Assembly: GCF_014635665.1 (NCBI RefSeq)
Contig: NZ_BMDG01000003.1
Span: 186,001 to 250,000, forward strand
DNA: 64,000 nucleotides
Source: Isoptericola cucumis
Lineage (GTDB): Bacteria > Actinomycetota > Actinomycetes > Actinomycetales > Cellulomonadaceae
Direction of reading: 5' to 3'
In this document: in pieces, positions 39,100-60,909 of the stretch
How positions within the stretch are numbered: position 1 is the stretch's first letter
Layout of the letters: each line of letters opens with the position of its first letter
Translations under genes and position numbers: made by a program
The notes under the pieces: model-generated
What the model was told of the DNA's origin: nothing
What the model saw: only the letters and a program-made list of their open reading frames with translations
Database searches by the model: none

Positions 39100-39138
39100 C
39101 GACCCCGACCGGGGGCGATCAGCAGAAGGAGGCCGGCC

Positions 39139-40371: not shown

Positions 40372-40424
40372 CCCCGCGGCACCGACCTGACGACATGACG
40401 ACCTGACGACCCGAGGAGGTGCAC

Positions 40425-41837: not shown

Positions 41838-42836
41838 TCAGCCCCGCGGCGCCGTGGAGGACCGCTCGACGAGGCGCGGGAGCACCACCTCGGGCTCGTG
41901 CACCGTCTCGGGGTCGGTGACCAGCGCGAGCACGTGCTCGACGGCGCGCCGCCCCATGTCGCGGAACGGCTGGCGCACGGTGGTCAGCGGGGGAGCGGCG
42001 TAGGGGGCGAGCGCGATGTCGTCCATCCCGACGACGGACACGTCCTCGGGCACGCGACGCCCGAGCTCGGCCAGGGCCCGGATCACGCCGAACGCCATCT
42101 CGTCGCTGGCGACGAACACCGCGGTGACCTCCGGCATGCGGCCGAGGATGGTCCCGTTGCGGTGCCCGGACGCGGGGGTCCAGTCGCCGTACAGCACGGG
42201 CGGGACGAGGCGGCCGGCGTCCTCGAGGGCGGCGCGCCAGCCGGAGGTGCGGCCCATCGCGTCGTTCCACGTGTCGGGCCCGGCCACGTGCCACACCGTG
42301 TCGTGGCCGAGGCCCAGGAGGTGGTCGGTGGCGACGCGCCCCGCCTCGACCTGGTCGACGGCGACGACCTCCGTCGCGGACGAGCGCATGCCGTCGACGA
42401 CGACGGTCGGCAGGTCGTGGGTGAGGTCGCCGAGAGAGACGTCCTCGCGGACCGGCACCGCGAGGACGAGCCCGTCGACGCCCTGGTCCATGAGCCGCTC
42501 GACGGCGGTGGCGATCGCGTCGAGCGACAGCGACGGGGTGGTCGCCGTCGACACGAAGTAGCCGCTCGCGCGGGCCGCGGTCTGGATGCCGAGCAGGATC
42601 GCGGAGGCGGAGTAGAAGTCGGTCTCGTGCGTGACCACGCCGATGGTGCGGCTGCGGCCGGTGACGAGGGCGCGCGCGAGCCGGTTGCGGCGGTAGCCGG
42701 TCTGCTCGACGGCGGCCCGGACCCTGGCGCGGGTGGCCGCGCCCACGTTCGGGTGGTCGGAGAGCACGCGGGACACGGTCTGCGCGGAGACGCCGGCGAC
42801 GCGCGCCACGTCGCTCATCGACGATGCCCTGGACAC
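41838..42836 (-). CDS. LacI family transcriptional regulator (O-glycan locus)
   Basis: A 332-residue LacI/GalR repressor. The helix-turn-helix SMSDVARVAGVSAQTVSRVL lies near the N-terminus, followed by the hinge helix NRLARALVTGRS. The periplasmic-binding-like sensor domain spans about 65-325. A clear ribosome site (AGGAGGTGACCC) precedes GTG 42836. It is divergent from the sugar-binding protein gene, so the ABC importer-GH35 operon is its likely target. A 15-base palindrome in the shared intergenic region is a candidate operator. Confidence 0.9.
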   Translation of the reverse strand: MSRASSMSDVARVAGVSAQTVSRVLSDHPNVGAATRARVRAAVEQTGYRRNRLARALVTGRSRTIGVVTHETDFYSASAILLGIQTAARASGYFVSTATTPSLSLDAIATAVERLMDQGVDGLVLAVPVREDVSLGDLTHDLPTVVVDGMRSSATEVVAVDQVEAGRVATDHLLGLGHDTVWHVAGPDTWNDAMGRTSGWRAALEDAGRLVPPVLYGDWTPASGHRNGTILGRMPEVTAVFVASDEMAFGVIRALAELGRRVPEDVSVVGMDDIALAPYAAPPLTTVRQPFRDMGRRAVEHVLALVTDPETVHEPEVVLPRLVERSSTAPRG

Positions 42837-42883
42837 GGGTCACCTCCTGGTTCGTCGCCCGGTGCGGCCGGCTCGCCGCGACC

Positions 42884-42898
42884 GTGCATCGGATGCAC
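42884..42898. promoter_or_regulatory. Candidate LacI operator
   Basis: GTGCATCGGATGCAC is a perfect 7-1-7 palindrome between the divergent LacI gene (start 42836) and the sugar-binding protein gene (start 43073). Confidence 0.5.
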
Positions 42899-42979
42899 CT
42901 TACCGCCCGGGATGGTGACGATCACATGATGGTGTGCCACGGATCGCCACGATGGCCGTGGATCTGGCGACCACGGGGC

Positions 42980-43009
42980 TTGTTATGGATATCAACTCGT
43001 GTCTAGAGT
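42980..43009 (+). promoter_or_regulatory. Probable promoter of the sugar ABC importer operon
   Basis: TTGTTA (42980-42985) and TAGAGT (43004-43009) with an 18-base spacer lie in an AT-rich patch about 65 bases before the binding-protein start. Confidence 0.45.
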
Positions 43010-43072
43010 GTGCGCCATCCCCGCGGCGTCGGCGCCGCTCCTCAGCACAGAGTGGTCAGAAGGAGTTCGACA

Positions 43073-44392
43073 ATGAAGCGTTCGACGGTGCGCGTCCCCG
43101 TCCGTGCGACCGGAGCGGCGTGCGTCGCCGCCCTCGCGGCGGTGGGCCTGACCGCCTGCGGGTCCCCGGCCGAGGGAGGTTCGTCCGCCGGTGGCGACGG
43201 CGGTCCCGTCGAGATCGAGGTGTGGACCTGGGCCCAGGGGTACGACAAGGCCGCGGAGGCGTTCAACGCCGCCCACGACGACGTGCAGGTGACGTACACG
43301 GAGATCGAGCCCGGAGCCAAGGGCGGCTACGACAAGATCCGCAACGCCATCAAGGCGGGTAGCGCGCCCTGCCTCGCACAGGTCGGCTACGAGACGATGC
43401 CCAGCTTCGCCTCCGAGGGCAACCTGCTCGACGTCACCGAGTTCGCCGCGGCGGACGCCGACGCCTACGCGCCGGCGGGCTGGTCCGGCGTGACGGTGGG
43501 CGACCGCGTCTACGCCGCGCCGCAGGACCAGGGCCCGATGGTCCTGTTCTACAACAAGGACGTGTTCGCCGAGCACGGCATCGAGGTCCCCACCACCTGG
43601 GACGAGTACCGCGCCGCGGGCGAGAAGCTCAAGGAGGCGGGCGTCGCGCTCACCGGGACCTACGAGGACTTCGACTACACGGGCTTCGCCTGGCAGGCGG
43701 GCGCGCCCTGGTACGCCGTGGCCGACGGGCAGTGGTCGATCACGAACGACTCGCCCGAGAACCAGGAGGTCGCCGCCTACTGGCAGGGGCTCGTCGACGA
43801 CGGCCTCGTCGGCGCCGGCATCTGGAGCGACGAGTGGGCCGCGGGCCTGTCGGACGGCAGCATCGCGACGATCGCGGGAGCCGCCTGGTTCAAGGGCATC
43901 CTCAAGGACTCGGCCGCCGGCGCCGCGGGCCGGTGGGCCGTCGCGCCGTTGCCGACCTGGGAGGCGGGCGAGACCGTGACGGGCAACGTCGGAGGCAGCG
44001 GCACGGCGGTCCTGGCCGGCTGCGAGAACCCCGAGGCCGCGTGGGAGGTCGCGCACTTCATGTCGACGGACCCCACCGCCGTGGACGCCGTCATCGAGGG
44101 CGCGGGCATCCTGCCGGCGTCGGTCGAGGGGCTGAAGTCCGACCTGCTGACGCAGGGCGACGACTACTTCGGCGGGCAGGTCGTGGACGAGGTCGCGATC
44201 GCCGCCTCCGCGGACGTCGCCGAAGGGTGGGTGTGGGGGCCCGGCGTCTCGACGCTCATCGACACCTTCGCGGCCGACATGAAGAAGGCCTACGACCAGC
44301 AGGGCACCGCCACCGTCGCGGACGCCCTGACGAGCTCCCGGACCGCGGCCGTCGACGGTCTGGCCAAGCAGGGCATCACCGTCGGCGAATGA
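43073..44392 (+). CDS. Sugar ABC transporter substrate-binding lipoprotein
   Basis: A family 1 extracellular solute-binding protein, 439 residues, anchored as a lipoprotein. The signal peptide ends in lipobox LTAC with Cys29. The mature protein begins with a Gly/Ser-rich linker and VEIEVWTWAQGYDKAAEAF. The ribosome site AAGGAG precedes ATG 43073. It is followed by two permease genes with 4-base overlaps and then by GH35 and GH101 enzymes. This context points to uptake of a galactosyl-GalNAc disaccharide released outside the cell; that ligand is inference. Confidence 0.9.
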   Translation: MKRSTVRVPVRATGAACVAALAAVGLTACGSPAEGGSSAGGDGGPVEIEVWTWAQGYDKAAEAFNAAHDDVQVTYTEIEPGAKGGYDKIRNAIKAGSAPCLAQVGYETMPSFASEGNLLDVTEFAAADADAYAPAGWSGVTVGDRVYAAPQDQGPMVLFYNKDVFAEHGIEVPTTWDEYRAAGEKLKEAGVALTGTYEDFDYTGFAWQAGAPWYAVADGQWSITNDSPENQEVAAYWQGLVDDGLVGAGIWSDEWAAGLSDGSIATIAGAAWFKGILKDSAAGAAGRWAVAPLPTWEAGETVTGNVGGSGTAVLAGCENPEAAWEVAHFMSTDPTAVDAVIEGAGILPASVEGLKSDLLTQGDDYFGGQVVDEVAIAASADVAEGWVWGPGVSTLIDTFAADMKKAYDQQGTATVADALTSSRTAAVDGLAKQGITVGE

Positions 44393-45345
44393 CCTCCGTG
44401 ACCTCCTCGACCCCCGTCCTCACGCCCGCCGGCCGGCGCGACTCCCGCGCCGCCCGGAGGGCCCCCGGCCGGCCCCGCACCGCCCGGTACGCGCTGTGGT
44501 TCGTCGCCCCCTTCGTGGTGCTGTTCGTCGGCGTGTACGTCGCGCCCATCTGCTACGCGATCTACCAGAGCCTGTTCCGCATCGAGCGCGACCCGCTCGG
44601 CCTGACCCCGCCCACGGAGGTCCTCGACCCGCTGTTCAACTACGCCGCGGTCCTCCAGGACGCCGCGTTCGTGGCGTCGCTGGGGCGCGTGCTGCTGTTC
44701 GGCGCGGTCCAGGTGCCGCTCATGCTCGGGTTCGCCCTCGCGCTGGCGCTGCTCATCGACTCCGCCTCGGCGCGCGGCAAGGGCTTCTTCCGGCTGGCGA
44801 GCTTCGCGCCGTACGCGGTGCCGACGGTCGTGTCGGCGCTCATGTGGTCGTTCCTCTATTCGCCGACGAACAGCCCGATCAACCGGCTGCTCGAGCCCGC
44901 GGGGATCACGGTGGACTTCCTCGGCGCCGACCTCACGCTCTGGTCGGTCGCGAACGTCGTGACCTGGGGGTGGACCGGCTACAACATGATCATCATCTAC
45001 GCCGCGCTGCAGGGGATCCCGGGCGAGGTGCTGGAGGCCGCCAGGCTCGACGGCGCGTCCCCGTGGCGCACCGCGTGGCACGTCAAGGTGCCGCTCGTGC
45101 GGCCGGCGATCCTGCTGACCGCGGTGTTCTCGATCATCGGCTCGGCGCAGCTCTACAACGAGCCCTTCGTGCTGTCGTCGAGCACGGGGACCATCGGCCC
45201 GCAGTACACGCCCCTCATGGCGGCGCAGTCGTCGATCACCGCCGCCAACTACCCGTACGCCGCCGCCCAGTCCGTGGTGCTCGCCCTCGGCGTCGCGGTG
45301 CTGTCCGTCCTCTTCTTCCGCCTCACCTCCCGGAGGTCCTCGTGA
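44389..45345 (+). CDS. Sugar ABC transporter permease (MalF/UgpA type)
   Basis: A membrane subunit of 318 residues with six helices and the cytoplasmic ATPase-contact loop EAARLDGASPWRTAWHVKVP near residue 220. It opens with an Arg-rich cytoplasmic tail. The ATG overlaps the binding-protein stop and its own stop overlaps the next permease, so the three are coupled. No ATPase gene follows; a shared MsiK-type ATPase elsewhere is the usual actinobacterial solution. Confidence 0.93.
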   Translation: MTSVTSSTPVLTPAGRRDSRAARRAPGRPRTARYALWFVAPFVVLFVGVYVAPICYAIYQSLFRIERDPLGLTPPTEVLDPLFNYAAVLQDAAFVASLGRVLLFGAVQVPLMLGFALALALLIDSASARGKGFFRLASFAPYAVPTVVSALMWSFLYSPTNSPINRLLEPAGITVDFLGADLTLWSVANVVTWGWTGYNMIIIYAALQGIPGEVLEAARLDGASPWRTAWHVKVPLVRPAILLTAVFSIIGSAQLYNEPFVLSSSTGTIGPQYTPLMAAQSSITAANYPYAAAQSVVLALGVAVLSVLFFRLTSRRSS

Positions 45346-46295
45346 GCGCCGCCGCGCCCGCCCTCGCCGATGCCGGCGCCCGACCCGACGGAGCGGCGCC
45401 CGGCGCGCCGGCCGGCGGGGGCCCGCGCCGCGCGGTCCGGCCCCGCCGCGACACGGTGGAGTCGACCGTCGGGAGCCGCGTGCTCGTCACCGGGGTCCTG
45501 GTGCTGACGAGCGTCTACTTCCTGCTCCCGCTGTGGTGGCTGCTGGTGGCGGCGACGAAGGACGCCGGCCACACGTTCGCCGGCAGCCCGCTGTGGTTCA
45601 GCCACTTCGACCTGTTCGGCAACATCGCCGACCTGTTCGCGTACAAGGGCGGCATCTTCGCGCTGTGGCTCGGCAACGCCGGCCTGTACTCGATCGTGGG
45701 CGCCGGGGTCGGCACCCTGGTCGCGGCGGCCACCGGGTACGCCGTCGCCAAGTACGAGTTCCCCGGGCGGCGCACGCTCTTCGCGGTCGTGCTGGGGGCG
45801 GTGCTCGTGCCCAAGGTGCTCTTCACGCTGCCACTGTTCCTCATGTTCTCGCAGGTCGGCATCGTGAACACGTATCTCGCGGTGCTGCTGCCGAGCATCG
45901 TCAGCCCGTTCGGCGTCTACCTCGCCCGCATCTTCGCGGCGTCCTCGGTGCCCGACGAGGTGATCGAGGCGGCGCGGCTGGACGGCGCGAACGAGGGGCG
46001 GATCTTCTTCCGGGTGAGCCTGCGGATGATGTCGCCGGCGCTCGTGACCATCTTCCTCTTCCAGTTCGTCGAGATCTGGAACAACTTCCTGCTGCCCTCG
46101 CAGGTGCTGATCGACGAGCAGCTCAAGCCCGTCACGGTCGGGCTCGTCTCCTGGAACGCGCTGGTGCAGTCCGGCCAGATCGAGCGGCACATGGTGCTCG
46201 TCGGCGCGTTCGTCGCCGTCGTGCCGCTGATCGTCGCGTTCCTGTCGCTGCAGCGCTTCTGGCGCTCGGGCCTGGCGACGGGGGCGGTCAAGTGA
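45342..46295 (+). CDS. Sugar ABC transporter permease (MalG/UgpE type)
   Basis: The second permease subunit, 317 residues, with six helices and the coupling loop EAARLDGANEGRIFFRVSLR near residue 210. A 45-residue Pro/Ala/Arg-rich cytoplasmic start precedes the first helix. GTG 45342 overlaps the upstream stop and the gene overlaps the GH35 start by 4 bases, placing importer and glycosidase in one transcript. Confidence 0.93.
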   Translation: MSAAAPALADAGARPDGAAPGAPAGGGPRRAVRPRRDTVESTVGSRVLVTGVLVLTSVYFLLPLWWLLVAATKDAGHTFAGSPLWFSHFDLFGNIADLFAYKGGIFALWLGNAGLYSIVGAGVGTLVAAATGYAVAKYEFPGRRTLFAVVLGAVLVPKVLFTLPLFLMFSQVGIVNTYLAVLLPSIVSPFGVYLARIFAASSVPDEVIEAARLDGANEGRIFFRVSLRMMSPALVTIFLFQFVEIWNNFLLPSQVLIDEQLKPVTVGLVSWNALVQSGQIERHMVLVGAFVAVVPLIVAFLSLQRFWRSGLATGAVK

Positions 46296-48103
46296 CGGCC
46301 GCGCCGACGCTCGGCGCGGCGGGCACGACGCTCCTGCGCCGCGGCGTCCCGCACCGGGTCCTGTCCGGCTCGGTGCACTACTTCCGCGTCCACCCCGACC
46401 TGTGGCCCGACCGGCTGCGGCGCGTGCGGGCGATGGGGCTCAACACGATCGACACGTACGTCCCGTGGAACTGGCACGAGCCGGAGCCGGGCCGCTTCGA
46501 CCTCGCCGGCGACCGCGACCTCGAGCGCTTCCTGCGCCTGGTGGGCGAGCTCGGCATGGACGCCGTCGTGCGGCCAGGGCCGTACATCTGCGCCGAGTGG
46601 TCGAACGGCGGGCTGCCCGCCTGGCTCACGGCGACGCCGGGCATCGCGCTGCGCACGAGCGACCCGGCGTTCACCGCCCCGGTGGCGCGCTGGTTCGACG
46701 AGCTCGTCCCGCGCCTCGCGGCGCTGCAGGCGAACCGCGGCGGACCGGTCGTCGCGGTCCAGGTGGAGAACGAGTACGGCAGCTACGGCGAGGACCACGC
46801 CTACATGGCCTGGGTCGAGCGCGCGCTCGCCGAGCGCGGCATCGACGAGCTCGTCTTCACCGCCGACGGACCCACCGACCTCATGCTCGACGGCGGGACG
46901 GTCCCGGGCGTGCTCGCCGCGGCGACGCTGGGCTCCCGGCCGGGCCCGGCCCGCGACCTGCTCGCCGCGCGGCGCCCGCCCGGCGAGCCGTTCCTCGTCG
47001 CCGAGCTGTGGAACGGCTGGTTCGACCACTGGGGCGAGGCGCACCACACCCGCGACCCGCAGGACGCCGCCCGCACGGTGCGCGAGGTCCTCGACCTCGG
47101 CGGCTCCGTCAGCCTGTACATGGCGCACGGCGGGTCGAACCCCGGTCTGTGGGCGGGCGCGAACCACGACGGCGACGTGCTGCAGCCCACCGTGACGAGC
47201 TACGACAGCGACGCGCCGGTGGCGGAGGACGGCACCGTCACCGCGAAGTTCCACGCCCTGCGGGAGGTCTTCGCCCCGTACCGGTCCGCCCACCTGCCGG
47301 CCGACGCGCTCGACGAGGGGTGGACGGCCCCGCGCCGGCGCCTGGCACCCCGCACGCTGCCGACCGTCCACCGGGCGGCCGTGCCCGCGCTCCGCGAGCT
47401 GGCGGGCGCGGGGGAGCGCAGCCCGCGGTCCCGCACCTTCGAGGACCTCGGCCTGGACGCGGGGCTCGTGCTGCACCGCGCGACGACCCGGCTGCCGGCG
47501 GGGGAGTCGGTGCTCAGCGTGCTCGGCCTGCACGACCGCGCCGTGGTGCACGTCGACGGCGTCCCGGTCGGCACCCTGGAGCGACGCACGGCGCACGAGG
47601 GCCTCGTCGTCGTCGGCACCGGGGCCGAGGTGGAGCTCGAGCTGGTGGTGGAGCACCTCGGCCGGGTGAACTACGGCCCGCGCCTCGGCGAGCCCAAGGG
47701 CCTCGTCGGCGACGTCCTCGTGGGCCGCCGCATCGTGCACGACTGGGAGTCCCGGCCGGTCCCGCTCGACCACATCTCCCCGGACGCCCTGTGGGCCGCG
47801 GCCGACGGGCCCGTCACCGGCGGCCGCGCCGTCGTCGCCCGCGCGACGCTCGACGTCGACGAGCCGGCCGACACGTACCTCGCGCTGCCCGGCTGGGCCA
47901 AGGGCTTCGTGTGGGTGAACGACGTGCTGCTCGGTCGCTACTGGGAGGTCGGCCCGCAACGCACCCTCTACGTCCCCGCGCCGCTGCTGCGGCCCGGTGC
48001 CAACACCCTCACGGTGCTCGAGCAGCACCGCGGGGGCACCGACCTCGAGCTGCTCGCCGAGCCCGACCTGGGCCCGGCCGAGGAGTACGTCGAGGAGCTC
48101 TGA
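46292..48103 (+). CDS. GH35 beta-galactosidase (intracellular)
   Basis: A glycoside hydrolase family 35 enzyme of 603 residues. The barrel opens with SGSVHYFRVHPDLWPDRLRR and NTIDTYVPWNWHEPEPG. The acid/base is Glu161 in VENEYGSYG, and the nucleophile is Glu238 in VAELWNGWFDHWG. C-terminal beta domains follow from about residue 340. There is no signal peptide, so it acts in the cytoplasm on imported sugar. With the importer upstream and GH101 downstream, the probable substrate is Gal-beta-1,3-GalNAc, giving galactose and GalNAc. Other beta-galactosides are possible. Confidence 0.9.
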   Translation: MTAAPTLGAAGTTLLRRGVPHRVLSGSVHYFRVHPDLWPDRLRRVRAMGLNTIDTYVPWNWHEPEPGRFDLAGDRDLERFLRLVGELGMDAVVRPGPYICAEWSNGGLPAWLTATPGIALRTSDPAFTAPVARWFDELVPRLAALQANRGGPVVAVQVENEYGSYGEDHAYMAWVERALAERGIDELVFTADGPTDLMLDGGTVPGVLAAATLGSRPGPARDLLAARRPPGEPFLVAELWNGWFDHWGEAHHTRDPQDAARTVREVLDLGGSVSLYMAHGGSNPGLWAGANHDGDVLQPTVTSYDSDAPVAEDGTVTAKFHALREVFAPYRSAHLPADALDEGWTAPRRRLAPRTLPTVHRAAVPALRELAGAGERSPRSRTFEDLGLDAGLVLHRATTRLPAGESVLSVLGLHDRAVVHVDGVPVGTLERRTAHEGLVVVGTGAEVELELVVEHLGRVNYGPRLGEPKGLVGDVLVGRRIVHDWESRPVPLDHISPDALWAAADGPVTGGRAVVARATLDVDEPADTYLALPGWAKGFVWVNDVLLGRYWEVGPQRTLYVPAPLLRPGANTLTVLEQHRGGTDLELLAEPDLGPAEEYVEEL

Positions 48104-48137
48104 CCAGCAGTTCCGCACGCACAGCACGGACCGCCAC

Positions 48138-48159
48138 GGCGGGTCGTCGTCGACCCGCC
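48138..48159 (+). other. Intergenic hairpin between GH35 and GH101 genes
   Basis: GGCGGGTCG (48138-48146) pairs perfectly with CGACCCGCC (48151-48159) around TCGT, 34 bases after GH35 and just before the GH101 ribosome site (GAAGGAG, 48165-48171). It may be a partial terminator, an mRNA 3'-end stabiliser or a translation control element. Confidence 0.45.
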
Positions 48160-48178
48160 CGATCGAAGGAGATCTCGC

Positions 48179-51100
48179 ATGGCACGACGATCCGTCCGTC
48201 CGCGCACCGCGCGCAGCGCCGTGGCCCTCGCCACGGCGCTCGCGGCGGGATGCGCCGGCCTCTCGGTGGCCCCGGCGGCTGCCGCGGGCCCCGACCCCCA
48301 CATAGCGACCGGCACGACGACCGGCACGACCGGCGCCGCGGCCGACGTCGCCACCGCGGCCGACCCGCTCACCCTGCGCTCGGCCGCGCTCGAGGTGCGC
48401 GTCGCCGACGACTTCCCCCGCGTCCTGAGCTACACGGACCGGGCCAGCGGGGCGACCCTGACCGGCAGCACCCGCCCGGTGACCTCGGTGACCATCGACG
48501 GGACGGCGCACGACGTCGCCGTCGCGCGCACCGGGTCCACCGCCGACACCGCGACGTACGGGCTGACGTTCCCCGACCTGCCGGGCGTGCGCATCGACGC
48601 CGCGCTGCGCGTGGCCGGCCAGCAGGTGCGCTTCGAGGTCACGAAGATCGTCGACACGGCCGACCACCGAGTCGGCACCCTCGAGATCCCCGGTCACGAC
48701 CTGCTCACCGTCTCCTCGTCGGACGCCGGGGCCACGGTGGCCAGCGCGATCATCTCGCCGGACCGTGGCAGCACCGGCGACACGTTCGAGAAGGTCACGG
48801 CGGACACGGCACCCGACGCGAAGCCCGTCGGCTCCGCCTACGCGATCGTCAGCGCGGGCGGCCTCGCGGCGTCCGTCGTCACCAACAGCGTCTACGACGA
48901 GGCGCAGGGCAGGGCGACGCGGGAGGGCAACCGCGTGCAGCGGCAGGCCTTCGCCGACGGCGACGTGAAGAGGGTCGGGGTGTGGTCCGGCGCCTGGACC
49001 TATCGCGCGAAAGGCTCGACCGTCACCGAGGAGCTGCCGTCGGCCACAGTCGTCGTAACGGGGGACGCCAACGACGACGGCGCCACCGACTGGCAGGACG
49101 GCGCGATCGCCTACCGTGACGCCGCGCCGAAGGCGCAGGGCGCCGACCAGGTGCCCGACCGGGTCGTCACGCACATCCCGTTCAACTTCGCGTCGCAGGC
49201 CACGCACCCGTTCCTGCGCACGCTCGACGACGTCAAGCGCATCTCGCTGGCCACCGACGGCCTCGGCCAGATGGCGCTCCTGAAGGGCTACGGCTCGGAG
49301 GGCCACGACTCGGCCCACCCCGACTACGGCGGCCACTACAACGAGCGCGCCGGCGGCCTGGCGGACATGCGCCGGCTCCTGGCGTCGGGCGGCGACTGGA
49401 ACGCCGACTTCGGCGTGCACATCAACGCCACCGAGGCGTACGCCAACGCGCACGCGTTCTCCGAGGAGCTGGTCGACCCCGACTCCGAGGGCTGGAACTG
49501 GCTCGGGCAGTCGTACTACATGGACCAGCGCCGCGACATCACCAGCGGTGACCTCGCGTCGCGGATCGGCCGGCTCGCGGACGAGACCGGCGGCGACCTC
49601 GACATGCTGTACGTCGACGTCTACTACAACTTCGGCTGGCAGGCGCGGGCGCTCGCGGACGCCGCGAAGGACTCCGGCTTCGAGCTCGCGACCGAGTGGT
49701 CGGACAAGTTCGAGGCGGACTCGCTGTGGAGCCACTGGTCGGCCGACGAGAACTACGGCGGCGCGTCGAACAAGGGGCTGAACTCGCAGATCGTGCGGTT
49801 CATCCGCAACGCGGAGAAGGACACCTGGAACCCGCACCCGCTGCTCGGCAACGCCCGCATCGTCGAGTGGGAGGGCTGGACCGGCCAGGTGGACTGGAAC
49901 GCCTTCTACGAGAACGTCTGGGCGAACAACGTCACCACCAAGTTCCTCCAGCACCACGAGATCCAGCGCTGGGACGACGAGGAGATCGCCTTCTCGGACG
50001 GCGTGACGGCGCGCGGCACCAGCGCGGCGGACCGGGAGATCCTCGTCGGGGACGCGGTCGTCGCGCGCGGCGACACCTACCTGCTGCCCTGGGGTGCGGG
50101 CGACGCGCCGGGCGCGGAGGGCAAGGTCGCGGAGGGCGACAAGCTGTACCACTACAACCCGGACGGCGGGTCGACCACGTGGACCCTGCCGGGCGAGCTG
50201 GCCGGCGCCTCCGGGCTGAGCCTCTACCGCCTCACCGACACCGGCCGCGAGAAGGTCGGCGTCGTGCCGGTCACGGGTGGCGAGGTGACGGTCGAGGCCG
50301 AGGCGGGGCAGCCGTACGTGCTCTTCCCGGACGTCCCCGGCAACGCGTTCCGCGCCCCGGGGGCGAAGCAGGTCGGCTGGGGCGAGGGCACTCCCGTCAC
50401 CAACCCCGGTTTCGACGCCGGCGACCTGGCCGCCTACGACACCACCGGTGCCGTGACGCGCGAGCGGCTCAGCAACGGCCAGCACGTCGCGCAGCTGGGC
50501 GCCGGCCCTGCGGCCCTGTCGCAGCGGCTCGGCGAGCTCGAGCCGGGCACGTACGCGGCGAGCGCCTGGGTCGAGGTCCAGCCGGGCGCGTCCCGCCCCA
50601 CGACGCTGGAGGTCTCCGGCCCGGGCCGGGCGGTCCGCGGCGCGTCGGTCGACCTGGAGCGCTCGACGGCTCGCAACGAGGTGGCGGCCGACGACAAGCA
50701 CAGCCGCTACTACCAGCGCGTGCAGGTCGTGTTCGACGTCGTGGACACGACGCGCCCGACGTTCACCGTGCGGGCGGGCGAGGGCGATGCCGTCGTCCGG
50801 CTCGACGACCTGCGGGTCGTGACCACGAAGCGCGCGCAGGCCCCGGACGCCGACGGCGACGTGGTCGCCTTCGACGACTTCGAGTCCGTCCCGCAGGGCT
50901 GGGGGCCGTTCGTCAAGGGTGACGCCGGCGGCGTCACCGACCCGCGCACGCACCTGGCGGAGCGGAACGCGCCGTACACGCAGGCCGGCTGGAACGACAA
51001 GCTGGTCGACGACGTCATCGACGGCGAGTGGTCGCTCAAGGCGCACGAGGAGAACCGCGGCCTGGTGTACCGGACGACGCCGGCCACGGTGCGGTTCGAG

Positions 51101-52177
51101 CCCGGCCACGCGTACCGCGTCTCCTTCGACCACCAGTCGGGTCGCGGCGGCCACTACTCATGGGTGACCGGGTACGACTCGGTCGCGACCGGGAAGCCGG
51201 AGAGCGTCGAGACCCGCAGCACGCCGCTCGGCGAGCAGCGCGAGACGGCGACCTTCACCGAGGAGGTCGTGGCCTCGGCCTGCGGCGACACCTGGGTCGG
51301 GCTGCGCAAGGCGACCGGCGGCGGGAACGAGGCGGACCTCGTCCTCGACAACTTCCTCGTGACCGATCTCGGCGTCGCGGACGAGGTGCCGGCGTGCGCG
51401 TCGCTCGACGTCGAGCCCTCGACGGCGTCCCTGGAGCCCGACGTCGCGAACACCGTGACGACCACGCTGCAGGTCTTCGAGCCGGCCGACGTCGCCGACG
51501 TCTCCGTCGGGCTCGACGTCCCCGAGGGCTGGGAGGTCACCGCCACCGACGCCGCGGAGGCCGGGTCGCTGCCGAGCGGCGGCGAGCTCGTCACGACGTG
51601 GGAGGTCACGCCGCGCGGCGACGTCACCACCGACGCGTACCGGCTGACGGCCGCCGCGACGTACACCACCACGGCGGACCCGGTCGGCCCGCGCACGGTC
51701 GAGGCGCGCTCGGACGTGCACGTCGTGGTGCCGCCCGCGGCAGGAGAGCACTGGGCGAGCGACCTGCCGTTCGTGGAGACGACGAACGGCTGGGGCCCTG
51801 TGGAGCGCGACCTGTCGAACGGCGAGCAGGGGCAGGGCGACGGCACGCCCCTCAGCCTGCGCGGCACGGTGCACGACAAGGGCATCGGGGTGCACGCGCC
51901 GTCGAGCGTCCGGCTCTTCCTCGGGGAGCGGTGCGCGACGTTCACCGCGACCGTGGGGGTCGACGACGTGCAGTCCCGCGGCTCCGTGGCGTTCGAGGTG
52001 CTCGGCGACGGCACGTCGCTCGCGAGCACGCCCGTGCTGCGCGGCGGCGGCGCGACGGAGGACCTCGCGGTCGACGTCGGCGGCGTGCGCTACCTCGACC
52101 TGGTGGTGACCGACGGCGGTGACGGCGTCGGCAACGACCACGCCGACTGGGCGAGCGCGAAGCTGTCCTGCGGCTGA
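48179..52177 (+). CDS. Secreted GH101 endo-alpha-N-acetylgalactosaminidase, multidomain
   Basis: A 1332-residue secreted enzyme of glycoside hydrolase family 101, which releases Gal-beta-1,3-GalNAc (core 1) from Ser/Thr of mucin-type glycoproteins. Order of parts: signal peptide (about 1-41), N-terminal beta-rich domain (60-310), catalytic barrel (about 325-640), C-terminal beta domain, two jelly-roll modules (about 740-890 and 895-1070), a NEW3-like domain (1080-1190) and an NPCBM module (1192-1332, with FVETTNGWGPVERDLSNGE). Likely nucleophile is Asp480 in MLYVDVYYN and acid/base Glu506 in LATEWSDKFE. VVTHIPFNFASQATHPFL is GH101-like. There is no cell-wall anchor, so it is probably released. 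Confidence 0.88.
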   Translation: MARRSVRPRTARSAVALATALAAGCAGLSVAPAAAAGPDPHIATGTTTGTTGAAADVATAADPLTLRSAALEVRVADDFPRVLSYTDRASGATLTGSTRPVTSVTIDGTAHDVAVARTGSTADTATYGLTFPDLPGVRIDAALRVAGQQVRFEVTKIVDTADHRVGTLEIPGHDLLTVSSSDAGATVASAIISPDRGSTGDTFEKVTADTAPDAKPVGSAYAIVSAGGLAASVVTNSVYDEAQGRATREGNRVQRQAFADGDVKRVGVWSGAWTYRAKGSTVTEELPSATVVVTGDANDDGATDWQDGAIAYRDAAPKAQGADQVPDRVVTHIPFNFASQATHPFLRTLDDVKRISLATDGLGQMALLKGYGSEGHDSAHPDYGGHYNERAGGLADMRRLLASGGDWNADFGVHINATEAYANAHAFSEELVDPDSEGWNWLGQSYYMDQRRDITSGDLASRIGRLADETGGDLDMLYVDVYYNFGWQARALADAAKDSGFELATEWSDKFEADSLWSHWSADENYGGASNKGLNSQIVRFIRNAEKDTWNPHPLLGNARIVEWEGWTGQVDWNAFYENVWANNVTTKFLQHHEIQRWDDEEIAFSDGVTARGTSAADREILVGDAVVARGDTYLLPWGAGDAPGAEGKVAEGDKLYHYNPDGGSTTWTLPGELAGASGLSLYRLTDTGREKVGVVPVTGGEVTVEAEAGQPYVLFPDVPGNAFRAPGAKQVGWGEGTPVTNPGFDAGDLAAYDTTGAVTRERLSNGQHVAQLGAGPAALSQRLGELEPGTYAASAWVEVQPGASRPTTLEVSGPGRAVRGASVDLERSTARNEVAADDKHSRYYQRVQVVFDVVDTTRPTFTVRAGEGDAVVRLDDLRVVTTKRAQAPDADGDVVAFDDFESVPQGWGPFVKGDAGGVTDPRTHLAERNAPYTQAGWNDKLVDDVIDGEWSLKAHEENRGLVYRTTPATVRFEPGHAYRVSFDHQSGRGGHYSWVTGYDSVATGKPESVETRSTPLGEQRETATFTEEVVASACGDTWVGLRKATGGGNEADLVLDNFLVTDLGVADEVPACASLDVEPSTASLEPDVANTVTTTLQVFEPADVADVSVGLDVPEGWEVTATDAAEAGSLPSGGELVTTWEVTPRGDVTTDAYRLTAAATYTTTADPVGPRTVEARSDVHVVVPPAAGEHWASDLPFVETTNGWGPVERDLSNGEQGQGDGTPLSLRGTVHDKGIGVHAPSSVRLFLGERCATFTATVGVDDVQSRGSVAFEVLGDGTSLASTPVLRGGGATEDLAVDVGGVRYLDLVVTDGGDGVGNDHADWASAKLSCG

Positions 52178-52207
52178 GCCGCCGCGGGACGTGGACGCCC
52201 GGTGCGG

Positions 52208-52435
52208 TCAGGCCTCGGCCGGCCGCATCGGGCGTCCCGTCTCCAGCAGGGGCTTGAGGTCGGCCAGGGCGGAGACCCGGCCCCCGGTGTACTTGTCGAT
52301 CCACCGGTCGTGGACCAGCCGGATCGGCACCGGGTTGAGGTGGTGCAGGGTCCGTCGGCCCTGCTTGCGGGTGACGACGAGCCCGGCGTCCGCGAGCCCC
52401 CGCAGGTGCTTCATCACGCCGAACCGAGAGGTGCC
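52208..52435 (-). pseudogene. Truncated ArsR-type regulator remnant
   Basis: Reading leftwards from 52432, the frame gives TSRFGVMKHLRGLADAGLVV and later HHLNPVPIRLVHDRWIDKY, the recognition helix, wing and C-terminus of an ArsR repressor of the kind paired with SRPBCC proteins. The first helices, about 40 residues, are missing. The open frame continues to 52504 but encodes unrelated residues, and no partner gene is present. The break near 52435 coincides with the start of the regulatory region of the next operon. This looks like a leftover from a rearrangement rather than a working gene, though a re-started short protein cannot be excluded. Confidence 0.7.
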
Positions 52436-52568
52436 CGCAGGGTCACATGTCGATGACGACGATCCCGCGTGCAGTAGTGACCGTTCCCTGGGCCAAACAA
52501 TCATTTTCGCTCACTTCTATGGTTGGATGTGCAGGAGACGGACCACCGAGACCTTGGCGAGGAGAACG

Positions 52569-53483
52569 ATGACCCAGGCAGCATCGACGGGACGTGTCCC
52601 GGGCGCGGACATGGCGGCAGAGCTGGCGTCCCAGCCCGAGACGTGGGAGCGCGCCGCAGGCCTTGCGGCCGCCGGGGGAGCGGCCCCGGCGGCGGGCGCG
52701 CGCGTCGCCGTGATCGGCTGCGGCACCTCGTGGTTCATGGCGCAGTCGTACGCGGTCGCTCGTGAGGCCTCGGGCCAGGGCGAGACCGACGCGTTCACGG
52801 CGTCCGAGGCCTTCGTCGACCGCGGCTACGACGCGGTCGTGGCGATCACCCGGTCGGGGACCACGACCGAGGTGCTCGAGCTCGTCGAGCACCTGCGCGG
52901 CCGGGTGCGCACCCTGGGGATCGTCGGCGACGAGGGCTCGCCGTTCGTCGACATGGTCGACGAGGTGGTCGCGCTGCCCTTCGCCGACGAGCGATCCGTG
53001 GTCCAGACCCGGTTCGCCACCACGGCGCTGGCCTACCTGCGGGCCACCCTCGGTCATGACCTCGCGCCCGCCGTCGCGGACGCTCGTGCCGCCCTCGTCG
53101 AGCCCCTGGCCGACGTGCTGGTGGACGCCGAGCAGCACACGTTCCTCGGCGCCGGGTGGACCGTCGGCCTGGCGCACGAGGCGGCGCTGAAGATGCGCGA
53201 GTCGTCCCAGTCGTGGACCGAGTCGTACCCCGCGATGGAGTACCGCCACGGGCCGATCGCGATCGCCGCGCCCGGGCGCGTGACCTGGGCCTTCGGCGAG
53301 ATGCCCGCCGGGATCGACCGCGACACCGCGGCGACGGGCGCGCACTTCGAGCACCGCACGGCCGACCCCCTCGCCGAGCTGGCGCGGGTGCACGCGGTCG
53401 CCCTGGAGCGGGCGCGGCGCCGGGGCCTCGACCCCGACCAGCCGCGCAACCTCACCCGCTCCGTCGTGCTCGAGGACTCGTGA
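52569..53483 (+). CDS. SIS-domain sugar-phosphate isomerase/deaminase (AgaS/NagB-II-like)
   Basis: A 304-residue protein with two SIS (sugar isomerase) domains. VAVIGCGTSWFMAQSYAVARE and VVAITRSGTTTEVLEL in the first domain are the phosphosugar-binding loops of the GlmS/AgaS type. FLGAGWTVGLAHEAALKMRE and AMEYRHGPIAI in the second match the catalytic Glu/His region. Likely role: convert galactosamine-6-P to tagatose-6-P and ammonia. GAGGAG precedes ATG 52569. It starts a four-gene operon with kinases and aldolase, all overlapping. A glucosamine-6-P deaminase activity is the main alternative. Confidence 0.85.
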   Translation: MTQAASTGRVPGADMAAELASQPETWERAAGLAAAGGAAPAAGARVAVIGCGTSWFMAQSYAVAREASGQGETDAFTASEAFVDRGYDAVVAITRSGTTTEVLELVEHLRGRVRTLGIVGDEGSPFVDMVDEVVALPFADERSVVQTRFATTALAYLRATLGHDLAPAVADARAALVEPLADVLVDAEQHTFLGAGWTVGLAHEAALKMRESSQSWTESYPAMEYRHGPIAIAAPGRVTWAFGEMPAGIDRDTAATGAHFEHRTADPLAELARVHAVALERARRRGLDPDQPRNLTRSVVLEDS

Positions 53484-54451
53484 CCGGCGACGTGTCGCCG
53501 TCGGCCGGGCCCTCCCTCGGGCCGGGGCCGGCGGTCCTCGCCGTCGACGTCGGCGGCACGGACACGAAGTCCGCGCTCGTCGACGAGGCCGGCGTCGTCC
53601 GCGAGATCCTGCGGCGCCCCACCCCGCACGACGGCGCCCGCACGGGCGAGCGCGTGGTCGACGAGGCCGTCGAGGTCGCCGCCGAGCTGCGCGCACGGCA
53701 CCCCGACGTGGTCCCGGCGGCCGTCGGCATGGTCGTGCCGGGCGTCGTCGACGACGAGCGCGGCGTCGGCGTGTGGTCCGAGAACCTCGGCTGGCGGGAC
53801 ATGCCCTTCGCCGACGTGGCCACCGCGCGGCTCGGCGTCCCGGTGTCGCTCGGCCACGACGTCGCCGCCGCGGGCTGGGCCGAGTACCAGCTGGGTGCCG
53901 CCGCCGGGTACCGCGACGCGCTCGTCGTGACTCTGGGGACGGGGATCGCCGCCGCCGTGCTGCTCGACGGGCGGCCGTACCGCGGGGGCGGCCTCGCGGG
54001 CGAGATCGGCCATGCGCGCGTCGCCGACGGTCCCGACTGCGTCTGCGGGGGACGCGGCTGCCTGGAGGCCGTCGCCTCCGCGGCGGCGATCGCCCGCCGC
54101 TACACCGCGGCCACCGGCCGGCCGGCCGCCGGGTCGCGCGAGGTCCTCGCCGCGGCCGACGCCGGCGACCGGGACGCGCAGACGGTGCGGGACGAGGCGT
54201 TCGACGCGCTCGCCTTGGGCCTGTCGCACGCCGTCGCGCTGCTCGCGCCCCAGGTGATCGTCCTCGGCGGCGGCCTCTCCCACGCGGGGGAGGCGCTCCT
54301 GGCGCCGCTGGGCCGGCGCCTGGACGACCTGCTGACGTTCCACCGCCGCCCCGTCCTGCTGCGCGCCCGCCTCGGCGGCGACGCCGGGGTCCTGGGCGCC
54401 GCCCTGCGGGCCCGGTCCGCGGTCGGCGGCGCGCCCGGAGGGGCCCCATGA
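53480..54451 (+). CDS. ROK family sugar kinase (candidate GalNAc kinase)
   Basis: A 323-residue ROK kinase. It has the phosphate loop VLAVDVGGTDTKSALV near residue 21, the catalytic Asp in LGHDVAAAGWAEY, and the second phosphate loop TLGTGIAAAVLLDG. The zinc motif is GEIGHARV followed by CVCGGRGCLEA. Both sides overlap neighbours by 4 bases. The context with an AgaS-like enzyme, tagatose-type kinase and aldolase suggests phosphorylation of GalNAc at C6 (the AgaK role). GlcNAc, glucose or another N-acetylhexosamine cannot be excluded from sequence. Confidence 0.82.
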   Translation: MTGDVSPSAGPSLGPGPAVLAVDVGGTDTKSALVDEAGVVREILRRPTPHDGARTGERVVDEAVEVAAELRARHPDVVPAAVGMVVPGVVDDERGVGVWSENLGWRDMPFADVATARLGVPVSLGHDVAAAGWAEYQLGAAAGYRDALVVTLGTGIAAAVLLDGRPYRGGGLAGEIGHARVADGPDCVCGGRGCLEAVASAAAIARRYTAATGRPAAGSREVLAAADAGDRDAQTVRDEAFDALALGLSHAVALLAPQVIVLGGGLSHAGEALLAPLGRRLDDLLTFHRRPVLLRARLGGDAGVLGAALRARSAVGGAPGGAP

Positions 54452-55491
54452 TCCTCACGGTCACCCCGAACCCGGCGATCGACGTCACCTACGAGGTGGA
54501 CGCCCTGGCGCCCGGCGCCTCGTTGCGCGTCGAGACGCCGGTCGCGCGTGCCGGGGGCAAGGGCGTCAACGTGGCCCGCGTGCTGCGTCAGGTCGGCCTC
54601 GACGCGCTGGCGGTCGTGACCGCGGGCGGGTCGTCCGGCGACGACCTGGTGGCCGACCTCGTGGCGTCCGGCCTGCCGCACCGCGTGGTGCGGACCGGGG
54701 CCCCGACGCGGCGCAGCGTCGCGATCGTCGACCGCGCCGCCGGCGACACCACCATCCTCAACGAGCGCGGCGGCCCGCTCGCCGCGCCCGAGGCGGCGGC
54801 GCTGCTCCGGGCCGTGGCCGACGGCCTCGGCGCCGGAGGCCTCGGCACCGGAAGCCTCGGCACCGGAAGCCTCGGCACCGGAAGCCCTGGTCGGCCGTCG
54901 TGCCTCGTCGTGTCCGGCAGCCTGCCGCCCGGCGCGCCCGAGTCGCTCGACGCCGACCTCGTCCGGGCGGCCCACGACGCGGGCGTCCCGGCGATCGTCG
55001 ACGCCGTCGGCCCGGCGCTGCTGGCCGCGTGCGCCGCGGGCGCCGACCTGGTCAAGCCCAACCGGGAGGAGCTGGCGGCCACCACCGGCGCCACCGACCC
55101 GGTGGCCGGGGCGCGTGCGCTGCTCGACGCGGGGGCCCGGCGGGTCGTCGTGACGCTCGGTGCCGAGGGGATGCTCGCCGTGGACGCCGCCCGCCCGGGC
55201 GACGTCACGCGCGCCCGGCTGCCGCGCACGCTGCGGGGCAACCCCACGGGGGCGGGCGACGCGGCCGTGGCCGCGGCCGCCGTGTCACTCGCCGGGCACG
55301 GGCCGGCCGCCCTGGACGACCTGCTGCGGCGCGCCGTGGCGTGGTCCGCGGCGGCCGTGCTCGCGCCGCTCGCCGGCGAGCTGGACCCGGGCCACCGCGA
55401 GCTCGAGCGCGACGTCGTCCTCACCCACCAGCCGGCCGGCCCTCCGGCCGGCAGCCCCGACCCGACGAGCACGGAGTCCCGATGCCACTGA
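54448..55491 (+). CDS. PfkB-family phosphosugar kinase (candidate tagatose-6-phosphate kinase)
   Basis: A 1-phosphofructokinase/tagatose-6-phosphate kinase family enzyme, 347 residues. MILTVTPNPAIDVTYEVDAL, the GGKGVNVARVL motif near residue 32, VKPNREEL and GNPTGAGDA with the catalytic Asp are all present. The context with AgaS and a class II aldolase favours tagatose-6-P as substrate. Residues 127-146 are four copies of a five-residue unit (LGAGG then LGTGS three times) encoded by 15-base tandem repeats. The start overlaps the ROK gene and the end overlaps the aldolase. Confidence 0.85.
   Translation: MILTVTPNPAIDVTYEVDALAPGASLRVETPVARAGGKGVNVARVLRQVGLDALAVVTAGGSSGDDLVADLVASGLPHRVVRTGAPTRRSVAIVDRAAGDTTILNERGGPLAAPEAAALLRAVADGLGAGGLGTGSLGTGSLGTGSPGRPSCLVVSGSLPPGAPESLDADLVRAAHDAGVPAIVDAVGPALLAACAAGADLVKPNREELAATTGATDPVAGARALLDAGARRVVVTLGAEGMLAVDAARPGDVTRARLPRTLRGNPTGAGDAAVAAAAVSLAGHGPAALDDLLRRAVAWSAAAVLAPLAGELDPGHRELERDVVLTHQPAGPPAGSPDPTSTESRCH
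54826..54885 (+). repeat. 15-bp tandem repeat, four copies, inside the PfkB kinase gene
   Basis: CTCGGCACCGGAAGC occurs three times exactly (54841-54885), preceded by a copy with two changes (54826-54840). The unit is a multiple of three, so copy-number change would keep the frame and only lengthen a surface loop. Confidence 0.9.
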
Positions 55492-56318
55492 CCCGCACCG
55501 CCGACGTCCTCACCGCCGCCGCCACCGCAGGCCGGGGGGTGGGAGCCTTCAACGTCATCCACCTCGAGACCGCCGAGGCGCTCGTCGCCGCGGCGGAGGA
55601 GACGGGGCTGCCCGTCGTCCTGCAGGTCTCGGAGAACTGCGTGACGTACCATGGCGCGCTCGACCCGCTGGCGATGGCGTGCCTGGAGCTCGCGCACTCC
55701 TCGGCCGCCGACGTCGCCGTGCACCTGGACCACGCCGAGGACGAGGACCTCGCCCGCGCCGCGGTCGACCTCGGCCTCGGGTCGGTGATGTTCGACGGTT
55801 CGACGCTCGAGTACGACCGGAACGTCGCCGCCACCGCGCGGGTCGTTCAGTACGCGCACGCCGCGCAGGTCGTCGTCGAGGCGGAGCTCGGCCGGATCGG
55901 CGGCAAGGACGGTGCGCACGCGCCGGGCGTGCGCACCGACCCCGCCGAGGCGGTCCGGTTCGTCGCGGAGACGGGCGTGGACTCCCTCGCCGTGGCCGTC
56001 GGCTCCTCGCACGCGATGACGGAGCGCACCGCCACGCTGGACCTCGAGCTGATCGCGGCCCTGCGCGACGCGCTCGACGTGCCGCTGGTGCTGCACGGGT
56101 CGTCCGGCGTGCCCGACGACGTGCTCGCGGCGGCCGTCCGGGCGGGGATGACGAAGATCAACGTGTCGACCCAGCTCAACAAGCACTTCACCGCGGCGGT
56201 GCGCGGCTACCTGGACGCCCACCCCGACGTCGTCGACTCCCGCAAGTACGTGCGGGCCGGCCGGGACGCCGTCACCGCGGAGGCCGCCCGACTGCTGAGG
56301 CTCTTCGCCGGGGAGTGA
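55482..56318 (+). CDS. Class II fructose/tagatose-bisphosphate aldolase (GatY/KbaY-like)
   Basis: A zinc aldolase that splits ketose-1,6-bisphosphate into DHAP and glyceraldehyde-3-P. The 278 residues include GVGAFNVIHLETAEALVAAA, VHLDHAEDEDLARAAVDLG with the catalytic Asp and zinc His, VVVEAELGRIGGKDG, and a zinc His with phosphate loop in LVLHGSSGVPDDV. KINVSTQLN completes the site. The length fits the GatY/KbaY subgroup better than the longer FbaA type. As last gene after a PfkB kinase it is the likely tagatose-1,6-bisphosphate aldolase. Confidence 0.88.
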   Translation: MPLTRTADVLTAAATAGRGVGAFNVIHLETAEALVAAAEETGLPVVLQVSENCVTYHGALDPLAMACLELAHSSAADVAVHLDHAEDEDLARAAVDLGLGSVMFDGSTLEYDRNVAATARVVQYAHAAQVVVEAELGRIGGKDGAHAPGVRTDPAEAVRFVAETGVDSLAVAVGSSHAMTERTATLDLELIAALRDALDVPLVLHGSSGVPDDVLAAAVRAGMTKINVSTQLNKHFTAAVRGYLDAHPDVVDSRKYVRAGRDAVTAEAARLLRLFAGE

Positions 56319-60810: not shown

Positions 60811-60825
60811 GACGGTCACTGTGGC

Positions 60826-60839
60826 AGAAATCGATTACA
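60826..60839. promoter_or_regulatory. LacI operator before the kinase-isomerase operon
   Basis: AGAAATCGATTACA matches 12 of 14 positions of the perfect palindrome TGTAATCGATTACA found before the GH172 gene (61975). It sits between the LacI gene and the FGGY kinase start. Confidence 0.65.
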
Positions 60840-60857
60840 GCCGCAAGCGTCCTCCCG

Positions 60858-60879
60858 CACCCGCAGCACCCCGCGGGTG
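60858..60879 (-). terminator. Possible terminator of the LacI gene
   Basis: CACCCGC (60858-60864) pairs with GCGGGTG (60873-60879) over an 8-base loop, about 30 bases after the LacI stop on the minus strand. Confidence 0.35.
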
Positions 60880-60909
60880 TGCGGATAGGCGTGCGGGCCG
60901 GCGTGCCGG

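What the first reader, a model, noticed from the sequence alone, without database searches (positions are those of the whole stretch)
41838..56318. A near-complete mucin core-1 O-glycan utilisation locus using GH35 hydrolysis instead of a phosphorylase
Seen: a secreted GH101 enzyme, an ABC importer, a signal-less GH35 beta-galactosidase, and a four-gene operon of AgaS-like SIS protein, ROK kinase, PfkB kinase and class II aldolase. Known: GH101 releases Gal-beta-1,3-GalNAc; bifidobacteria split it inside the cell with the GH112 phosphorylase. Inferred: here GH35 hydrolyses the disaccharide and GalNAc enters a tagatose pathway (GalNAc-6-P, tagatose-6-P, tagatose-1,6-bisphosphate). I know of no description of this combined layout.
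Basis: partly seen in the sequence, partly recalled or inferred. Interest (0 to 1): 0.78.

Follow-up and report, generated by a model that had tools for sequence, protein, structure and literature searches.

The report
Bacterial operons for eating mucin sugars
Two neighbouring gene sets in this bacterium look built to cut the Gal-GalNAc sugar off mucin-type proteins, import it, split it and feed the GalNAc half into central metabolism; the recipe is known from streptococci and lactobacilli, but this version uses a different importer, kinase and isomerase.

Summary
In detail: LacI, three ABC genes, signal-less GH35, secreted GH101, then SIS-ROK-PfkB-aldolase, within 41838-56318. GH101 keeps both catalytic acids; GH35 is closest to 4mad (BgaC); the binding protein lies near bifidobacterial galactoside binders. 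The SIS operon is tied to GalNAc by relatives that carry with it an AgaR-like regulator, sometimes a NagA or a GH31 alpha-N-acetylgalactosaminidase-like gene, and by co-occurrence with GH101 (11 of 11 GH101 genomes of 200 in the family; 5 of 5 of 396 in the phylum), although the two operons lie within 20 kb in only 1 of 14 relatives.

Corrections. (1) Two transcription units, not one locus: the LacI operator lies only before the GH101 operon; another motif lies before SIS. (3) The SIS protein fails the AgaS family test; it is nearest to GlmD/NagB-II deaminases. (4) GH35 feeding an AgaS/tagatose route is already described in streptococci and Lactobacillus casei. What remains new is an ABC/ROK-kinase variant with an unassigned isomerase in actinobacteria. 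No activity was measured; the GH112 search lacked a positive control.

The parts
41838..42836 (-). LacI-family regulator of the GH101 operon
   Evidence: LacI-type NCBIfam hits, none over its cut-off; solved relatives include lac repressor; beside GH35-GH101 in 9 of 15 GH101 genomes examined
42979..42996 (+). LacI operator candidate, GTTGTkATnnATATCAAC type
   Evidence: at the same place in 8 of 8 aligned loci; window site has 1 mismatch, next best other site in the window 4; in G467 (L101), not used for the pattern, the best site (3 mismatches) lies between LacI and SBP
43073..44392 (+). ABC solute-binding lipoprotein
   Evidence: PF01547; PDB: 6q5g/6h0h 179/178 bits, galacto-N-biose/lacto-N-biose binding protein 2z8d 151 bits
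44389..45345 (+). ABC permease 1
   Evidence: PF00528
45342..46295 (+). ABC permease 2
   Evidence: PF00528
46292..48103 (+). GH35 beta-galactosidase, BgaC-like, no signal peptide seen
   Evidence: PF01301 360 bits; best PDB 4mad 491 bits, next 8fa5 400, 4e8c 385; E161, E238, W240, W243, Y461 present
48179..52177 (+). secreted GH101 endo-alpha-N-acetylgalactosaminidase
   Evidence: PF12905, PF18080, PF17451, PF17974, NPCBM and NPCBM_assoc over cut-off, PF21466 below; aligned to EngBF structures over both catalytic acids, here D480 and E506
52199..52430 (-). broken ArsR-like gene between the two operons (approximate limits)
   Evidence: minus-strand frames; family named by eye only
52505..52514 (+). 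TTTCGCTCAC motif in the SIS promoter, AgaR-type operator candidate
   Evidence: 4 exact hits in 62 sequences (1.28 Mb), 0.9 expected by composition; all 4 lie before SIS (3) or before the SBP gene after GH101 in G072 (1)
52569..53483 (+). SIS protein, proposed GalN-6-P deaminase/isomerase (not AgaS family)
   Evidence: PF01380; profile and fold nearest to GlcN-6-P deaminases; TIGR02815 not reported and absent elsewhere in the genome
53480..54451 (+). ROK kinase, proposed GalNAc 6-kinase
   Evidence: PF00480; nearest solved: glucokinase 137 bits, N-acetylmannosamine kinase 82 bits
54448..55491 (+). PfkB kinase, proposed tagatose-6-P kinase
   Evidence: TIGR03168 219.7 bits, cut-off 216.4; lacC 103 bits, cut-off 410; solved relatives: 6-phosphofructokinase 2 106 bits, tagatose-6-P kinase 98 bits
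55482..56318 (+). class II aldolase, GatY/KbaY or FbaA type
   Evidence: PF01116 283 bits; best NCBIfam GatY 237 bits, below its cut-off 383; solved: a fructose-bisphosphate aldolase 181 bits, AgaY 1gvf 177 bits

Best explanation
Two operons together make a pathway for core-1 mucin-type O-glycans. Secreted GH101 frees Gal-beta-1,3-GalNAc; the ABC system (with an ATPase from elsewhere) imports it; cytoplasmic GH35 hydrolyses it to galactose (to the Leloir pathway; a GalK is present) and GalNAc. The ROK kinase makes GalNAc-6-P, a NagA encoded on another contig deacetylates it, the SIS enzyme deaminates and isomerises GalN-6-P to tagatose-6-P, PfkB makes tagatose-1,6-bisphosphate and the class II aldolase cleaves it. 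The first operon is controlled by the adjacent LacI protein; the second by an AgaR-type regulator whose gene is no longer beside it. Shown by sequence: gene identities, conserved order, catalytic residues, operator conservation, co-occurrence. Inferred: every substrate, every reaction, which protein binds which motif, induction.
For: GH101 domains and catalytic residues. GH35 nearest to 4mad. SBP near the GNB/LNB binding protein. Order LacI-SBP-P1-P2-GH35-GH101 in 8 of 15 GH101 genomes, GH35 next before GH101 in 9 of 15. GH101 genomes have the SIS ortholog: 11 of 11 against 28 of 189 others in the family, 5 of 5 against 24 of 391 in the phylum, 2 of 2 against 0 of 16 in the genus. AgaR-like gene near SIS in 34 of 37 other SIS loci fetched, NagA homolog in 3, GH31 homolog in 3; the GH31 of one is nearest to GH31 alpha-N-acetylgalactosaminidase. 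Motif TTTCGCTCAC shared by SIS promoters and the SBP gene after GH101 in G072; the 114-aa piece of that SBP is 59% identical to an SBP beside SIS in G456. LacI operator also found in a genome not used to define it. GalK and NagA-like in the genome.
Against: The operons are within 20 kb in only 1 of 14 relatives (G142); on one contig but 0.7 Mb or more apart in 6; on different contigs in 7. SIS occurs in 28 family genomes without GH101, so it is not specific to core-1. No LacI operator before SIS. The SBP scores higher with 6q5g/6h0h than with the GNB binder. NagA scores 200.7 bits, under its cut-off of 225.65. The AgaR model is only second best for the G072 regulator and under its cut-off. PfkB and aldolase score about as well with fructose-phosphate enzymes as with tagatose ones. 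Of 8 named GH101 loci, 7 show no GH35 and none shows SIS nearby. Genomes are related, so the Fisher values overstate independence.
Confidence: 0.72

Rival explanations
1. Accidental neighbours: the LacI-ABC-GH35-GH101 operon feeds core-1 sugar into a different GalNAc route (for example an N-acetylhexosamine 1-kinase, not searched for), and the SIS operon serves another amino sugar (free GalN, or GlcN).
For: Operons apart in 13 of 14 relatives; different promoter motifs; broken gene at the junction; no deacetylase in the locus; SIS fold nearest to GlcN-6-P deaminases.
Against: One-way co-occurrence of GH101 with SIS; AgaR-like, NagA and GH31 genes beside SIS in relatives; shared motif and transporter type in G072 and G456.
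Confidence: 0.2
2. Plant galactoside locus: SBP and GH35 act on beta-galacto-oligosaccharides of arabinogalactan, and GH101 is a passenger.
For: SBP best matches 6q5g/6h0h, recalled to be beta-1,6-galactobiose binders; GH35 is a broad family (recalled).
Against: GH101 is the last gene of the conserved operon in 8 of 15 GH101 genomes; GH35 is nearest to 4mad, recalled as beta-1,3-specific BgaC.
Confidence: 0.06

Closest known systems
Streptococcal aga regulon: bgaC-gadVWEF-agaS-galM in S. pneumoniae; agaS, agaAY and bgaC-gadVWEF in S. suis (PMC5018945 and PMC4694137, passages read)
   Same: GH35 beta-galactosidase with a sugar importer and a GalN-6-P deaminase/isomerase; repressor named AgaR; GalNAc-induced; deacetylase may lie outside the operon
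   Different: PTS import with phosphorylation instead of ABC import and ROK kinase; AgaS; the pneumococcal AgaR is a GntR-family protein, here a DeoR-type one; no GH101 in the operon described
Lactobacillus casei gnb operon (PMC6109692, passages read)
   Same: Intracellular GH35 GnbG splitting Gal-beta-1,3-GalNAc, with deacetylase and isomerising deaminase genes
   Different: PTS; GnbG has low activity on the unphosphorylated disaccharide; the review says GNB must be released by others
Bifidobacterial LNB/GNB pathway (PMC6109692, passages read)
   Same: Secreted GH101, ABC importer with GNB-binding protein
   Different: Phosphorylase and N-acetylhexosamine 1-kinase instead of GH35 and the tagatose route
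Shewanella Aga pathway with permease AgaP and kinase AgaK (PMC2996990, passages read; Leyn 2012 recalled, not held)
   Same: Non-PTS import plus a dedicated GalNAc kinase
   Different: Permease; no GH101/GH35 named in the passages; families of its kinase and isomerase not compared here

Membership tests
GH101 | Pfam GH101 catalytic domain above cut-off | tested here: met
   PF12905 405.8 bits, cut-off 25
GH101 | catalytic Asp nucleophile and Glu acid/base (EngBF D789/E822, numbers recalled) | tested here: met
   D480 and E506 align, placed
GH101 | release of core-1 disaccharide | not testable with these tools
   needs enzyme assay
GH35, BgaC-type beta-1,3-galactosidase | GH35 domain | tested here: met
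   PF01301 360 bits
GH35, BgaC-type beta-1,3-galactosidase | beta-1,3 specificity residues (Trp/Trp/Tyr, recalled from pneumococcal BgaC) | tested here: inconclusive
   W240, W243, Y461 present and identical in 4mad; their role is recalled and specificity was not assayed
AgaS (TIGR02815) | score above curated cut-off 529.2 bits | tested here: not met
   not reported for the SIS protein at E 0.001; best in genome 23.2 bits, at another place, while 1 of 14 control genomes is over the cut-off
AgaS-type function | GalN-6-P to tagatose-6-P and ammonia | not testable with these tools
   context only
Bifidobacterial GNB pathway | GH112 phosphorylase | tested here: inconclusive
   no PF09508 match in the genome nor in 396 phylum genomes, but no control rang
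Streptococcal aga / L. casei gnb operon | PTS in the cluster | tested here: not met
   ABC permeases and SBP instead
GalNAc tagatose pathway | deacetylase with the isomerase genes | tested here: not met
   none in the locus; one NagA-like gene on contig C7, below cut-off; NagA homolog beside SIS in 3 of 37 other loci, L072, L115, L122

The most novel reading that the evidence does not exclude
The SIS protein belongs to a separate family of GalN-6-P deaminase/isomerases, not orthologous to AgaS, that with a ROK GalNAc kinase and an AgaR-type regulator forms the actinobacterial GalNAc pathway, and in GH101-bearing actinobacteria it is fed by an ABC/GH35 core-1 disaccharide operon.
Probability: 0.6. 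Interest if true: 0.5.

Novelty: new variant of a known kind. Interest (0 to 1): 0.42.

Why it matters
It would add actinobacteria of a family not discussed for it in the papers seen here to the users of mucin-type O-glycans, and name a candidate enzyme for a step that annotation misses because the known AgaS model does not match. It gives a clean test: one enzyme, one substrate (GalN-6-P).

Tried and rejected
Single regulon under LacI: rejected, no LacI operator before SIS. SIS as AgaS: rejected by TIGR02815. GH31 alpha-GalNAcase elsewhere in the window's genome: only the C-terminal part of the query matches. AgaR elsewhere: the nearest homolog is 52% identical and its upstream 160 bases lack the motif. 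Integration at tRNA-Ala: the match to the G072 chromosome stops at the tRNA end (29859) and resumes at 52560, but no 12- or 14-mer of the tRNA was found elsewhere in the window, so no island is claimed. GH112 absence: no positive control, left open. VIA-align: library not available.
Full report
The window is a stretch of a 4.46-Mb genome (G000, 29 contigs, unnamed), 74.8% GC.

GH101. Six domains pass their Pfam cut-offs and PF21466 (domain 5) falls short. The protein aligns to EngBF and SpGH101 structures, with D480 and E506 at the places of the two catalytic acids (EngBF residue numbers are recalled). GH101 is rare: 11 of 200 genomes sampled in the family and 5 of 396 in the phylum over cut-off, own genome included in both, plus one phylum match below cut-off.

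GH35 and importer. GH35 shows no signal peptide by eye and is closest to 4mad (491 bits), ahead of all others (400 or less). I recall 4mad as Bacillus circulans BgaC, specific for beta-1,3 galactosides. The SBP's best solved relatives are 6q5g/6h0h (179/178 bits) and the galacto-N-biose/lacto-N-biose binding protein 2z8d (151 bits), so galactoside binding is likely and the exact linkage open.

Conservation of the first operon. I examined 15 GH101 genomes: 11 of the family (own, G072, G012, G015, six of genus g23, G142) and four more of the phylum over cut-off (G467, G306, G370, G533). LacI-SBP-P1-P2-GH35-GH101 is found in 8 of 15 (own, six g23, and G467 of another family), GH35 directly before GH101 in 9 of 15 (also G072, which lacks the ABC genes there); in G533 LacI and GH35 follow GH101; 5 of 15 (G142, G012, G015, G306, G370) show no GH35 in the stretch fetched, which for G142 holds only 4 kb on one side. 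Of 8 named loci from another collection, 7 have no GH35 beside GH101 by tblastn and one has a 30% match; none has SIS. A palindromic site is conserved before the first gene in 8 of 8 aligned loci; in the window it occurs at 42979, one mismatch from the pattern, the next best other site having four. In G467, which was not used for the pattern, the best site (three mismatches) lies between LacI and SBP; in G533 the best (four mismatches) lies just before GH101, a level also reached by chance elsewhere.

The second operon. SIS orthologs (E 1e-70 or better) occur in 39 of 200 family genomes and, at 1e-30, in 29 of 396 phylum genomes. All 11 and all 5 GH101 genomes are among them (Fisher 4e-9 and 1.5e-6; own genome in both sets; not corrected for kinship). 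Within the genus, 2 of 2 GH101 genomes have it against 0 of 16 others (p 0.0065; an earlier count used 15 by mistake). GH101 and SIS lie within 20 kb in 1 of 14 relatives (G142), 0.7 Mb or more apart on one contig in 6, on different contigs of the assembly in 7. I fetched 37 other SIS loci: 29 of the 38 other family genomes and 8 of the 28 other phylum genomes, mostly the best-scoring. An AgaR-like DeoR regulator lies near SIS in 34 of 37, a NagA homolog in 3 (L072, L115, L122) and a GH31 homolog in 3 (L061, L064, L078). The GH31 of L061, the only one compared, is closest to entries named GH31 alpha-N-acetylgalactosaminidase (428-431 bits against 184 for the next). The L061 regulator scores 183 bits with a haloarchaeal GlpR model (cut-off 300) and 175 with AgaR (cut-off 260), so 'AgaR-like' is a family resemblance. 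A second type of SIS locus has a ribokinase-like kinase in 9 of 9 (L080, L082-L089; L081 is cut short) and a GH4 enzyme in 8 of 9, by clustering with one scanned member of each; ROK was not found in these. SIS is thus used beyond core-1.

SIS identity. It fails AgaS: TIGR02815 is not reported for it, and the genome's best match to that model is 23 bits elsewhere. A profile of 20 orthologs matches GlcN-6-P deaminase structures first (131 bits) and the structures named tagatose-6-phosphate ketose/aldose isomerase weakly (38-55 bits). The AlphaFold model (pLDDT 88.9) is nearest to GlcN-6-P deaminases. An amino-sugar-6-phosphate deaminase/isomerase is well supported; GalN-6-P as substrate rests on context.

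Regulation. TTTCGCTCAC was sought in 62 of the fetched sequences (short loci left out): 4 hits, 0.9 expected, namely before SIS in the window, in G072 and in G074 (L084), and before the SBP gene that follows GH101 in G072. Only 3 of 38 SIS loci have this exact motif. The 114-aa piece of that SBP (the contig ends there) is 59% identical to an SBP beside the SIS operon of G456. The AgaR gene next to SIS in G072 has no counterpart in the window; the nearest homolog in the genome is 52% identical, on contig C2.

Missing steps. The genome has one NagA-like gene (200.7 bits, cut-off 225.65) on contig C7, beside a GH42 enzyme and an ABC system related to the GH101 one, and a GalK over cut-off. E. coli NagA can replace AgaA (PMC12118421, passage read). 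The ABC ATPase was not searched for; GH112 gave no match, without a positive control.

Literature. GH35 with an AgaS-type route is described in streptococci (PMC5018945, PMC4694137) and L. casei (PMC6109692), a GalNAc kinase with a permease in Shewanella (PMC2996990), mucin pathways of gut bacteria in PMC5583593; in all of these passages found by term were read. By title and abstract start, searches listed no paper on this actinobacterial arrangement; only open-licence papers are held, and I read none whole.

Verdict: a real, conserved and probably correctly read pathway, assembled from two operons; a new variant of a known kind.

Noticed in passing
window 54824-54886: In-frame 15-bp tandem repeat (4.2 copies, 95% match) inside the PfkB gene, coding Gly-Leu-Gly-Thr-Gly-Ser-like units.
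   Followed up: no
window 37852-41807: Ectoine degradation-like genes beside the locus: ectoine hydrolase (764 bits, over cut-off), diaminobutyrate transaminase, aldehyde dehydrogenase; the hydrolase and the dehydrogenase also lie beside GH35-GH101 in G072.
   Followed up: partly
window 57650-61887: Fucose-isomerase-like protein (Pfam hit below cut-off), FGGY kinase and second LacI next to the SIS operon; a DUF2961 protein follows on the other strand.
   Followed up: no
window 29859 to 52560: Stretch absent at the matching place of the G072 chromosome, where an ISL3 transposase and a sulfatase lie between tRNA-Ala and AgaR-SIS; parts of it match a separate 21.9-kb contig of G072.
   Followed up: partly
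L090:9936-17631 (G000 contig C7): NagA-like gene next to a GH42 beta-galactosidase and an ABC system and LacI related to those of the GH101 operon (31-48% identity): a possible second amino-sugar galactoside locus.
   Followed up: no
L019:7592-16069 (Nonomuraea endophytica): Two GH101 genes close together.
   Followed up: no
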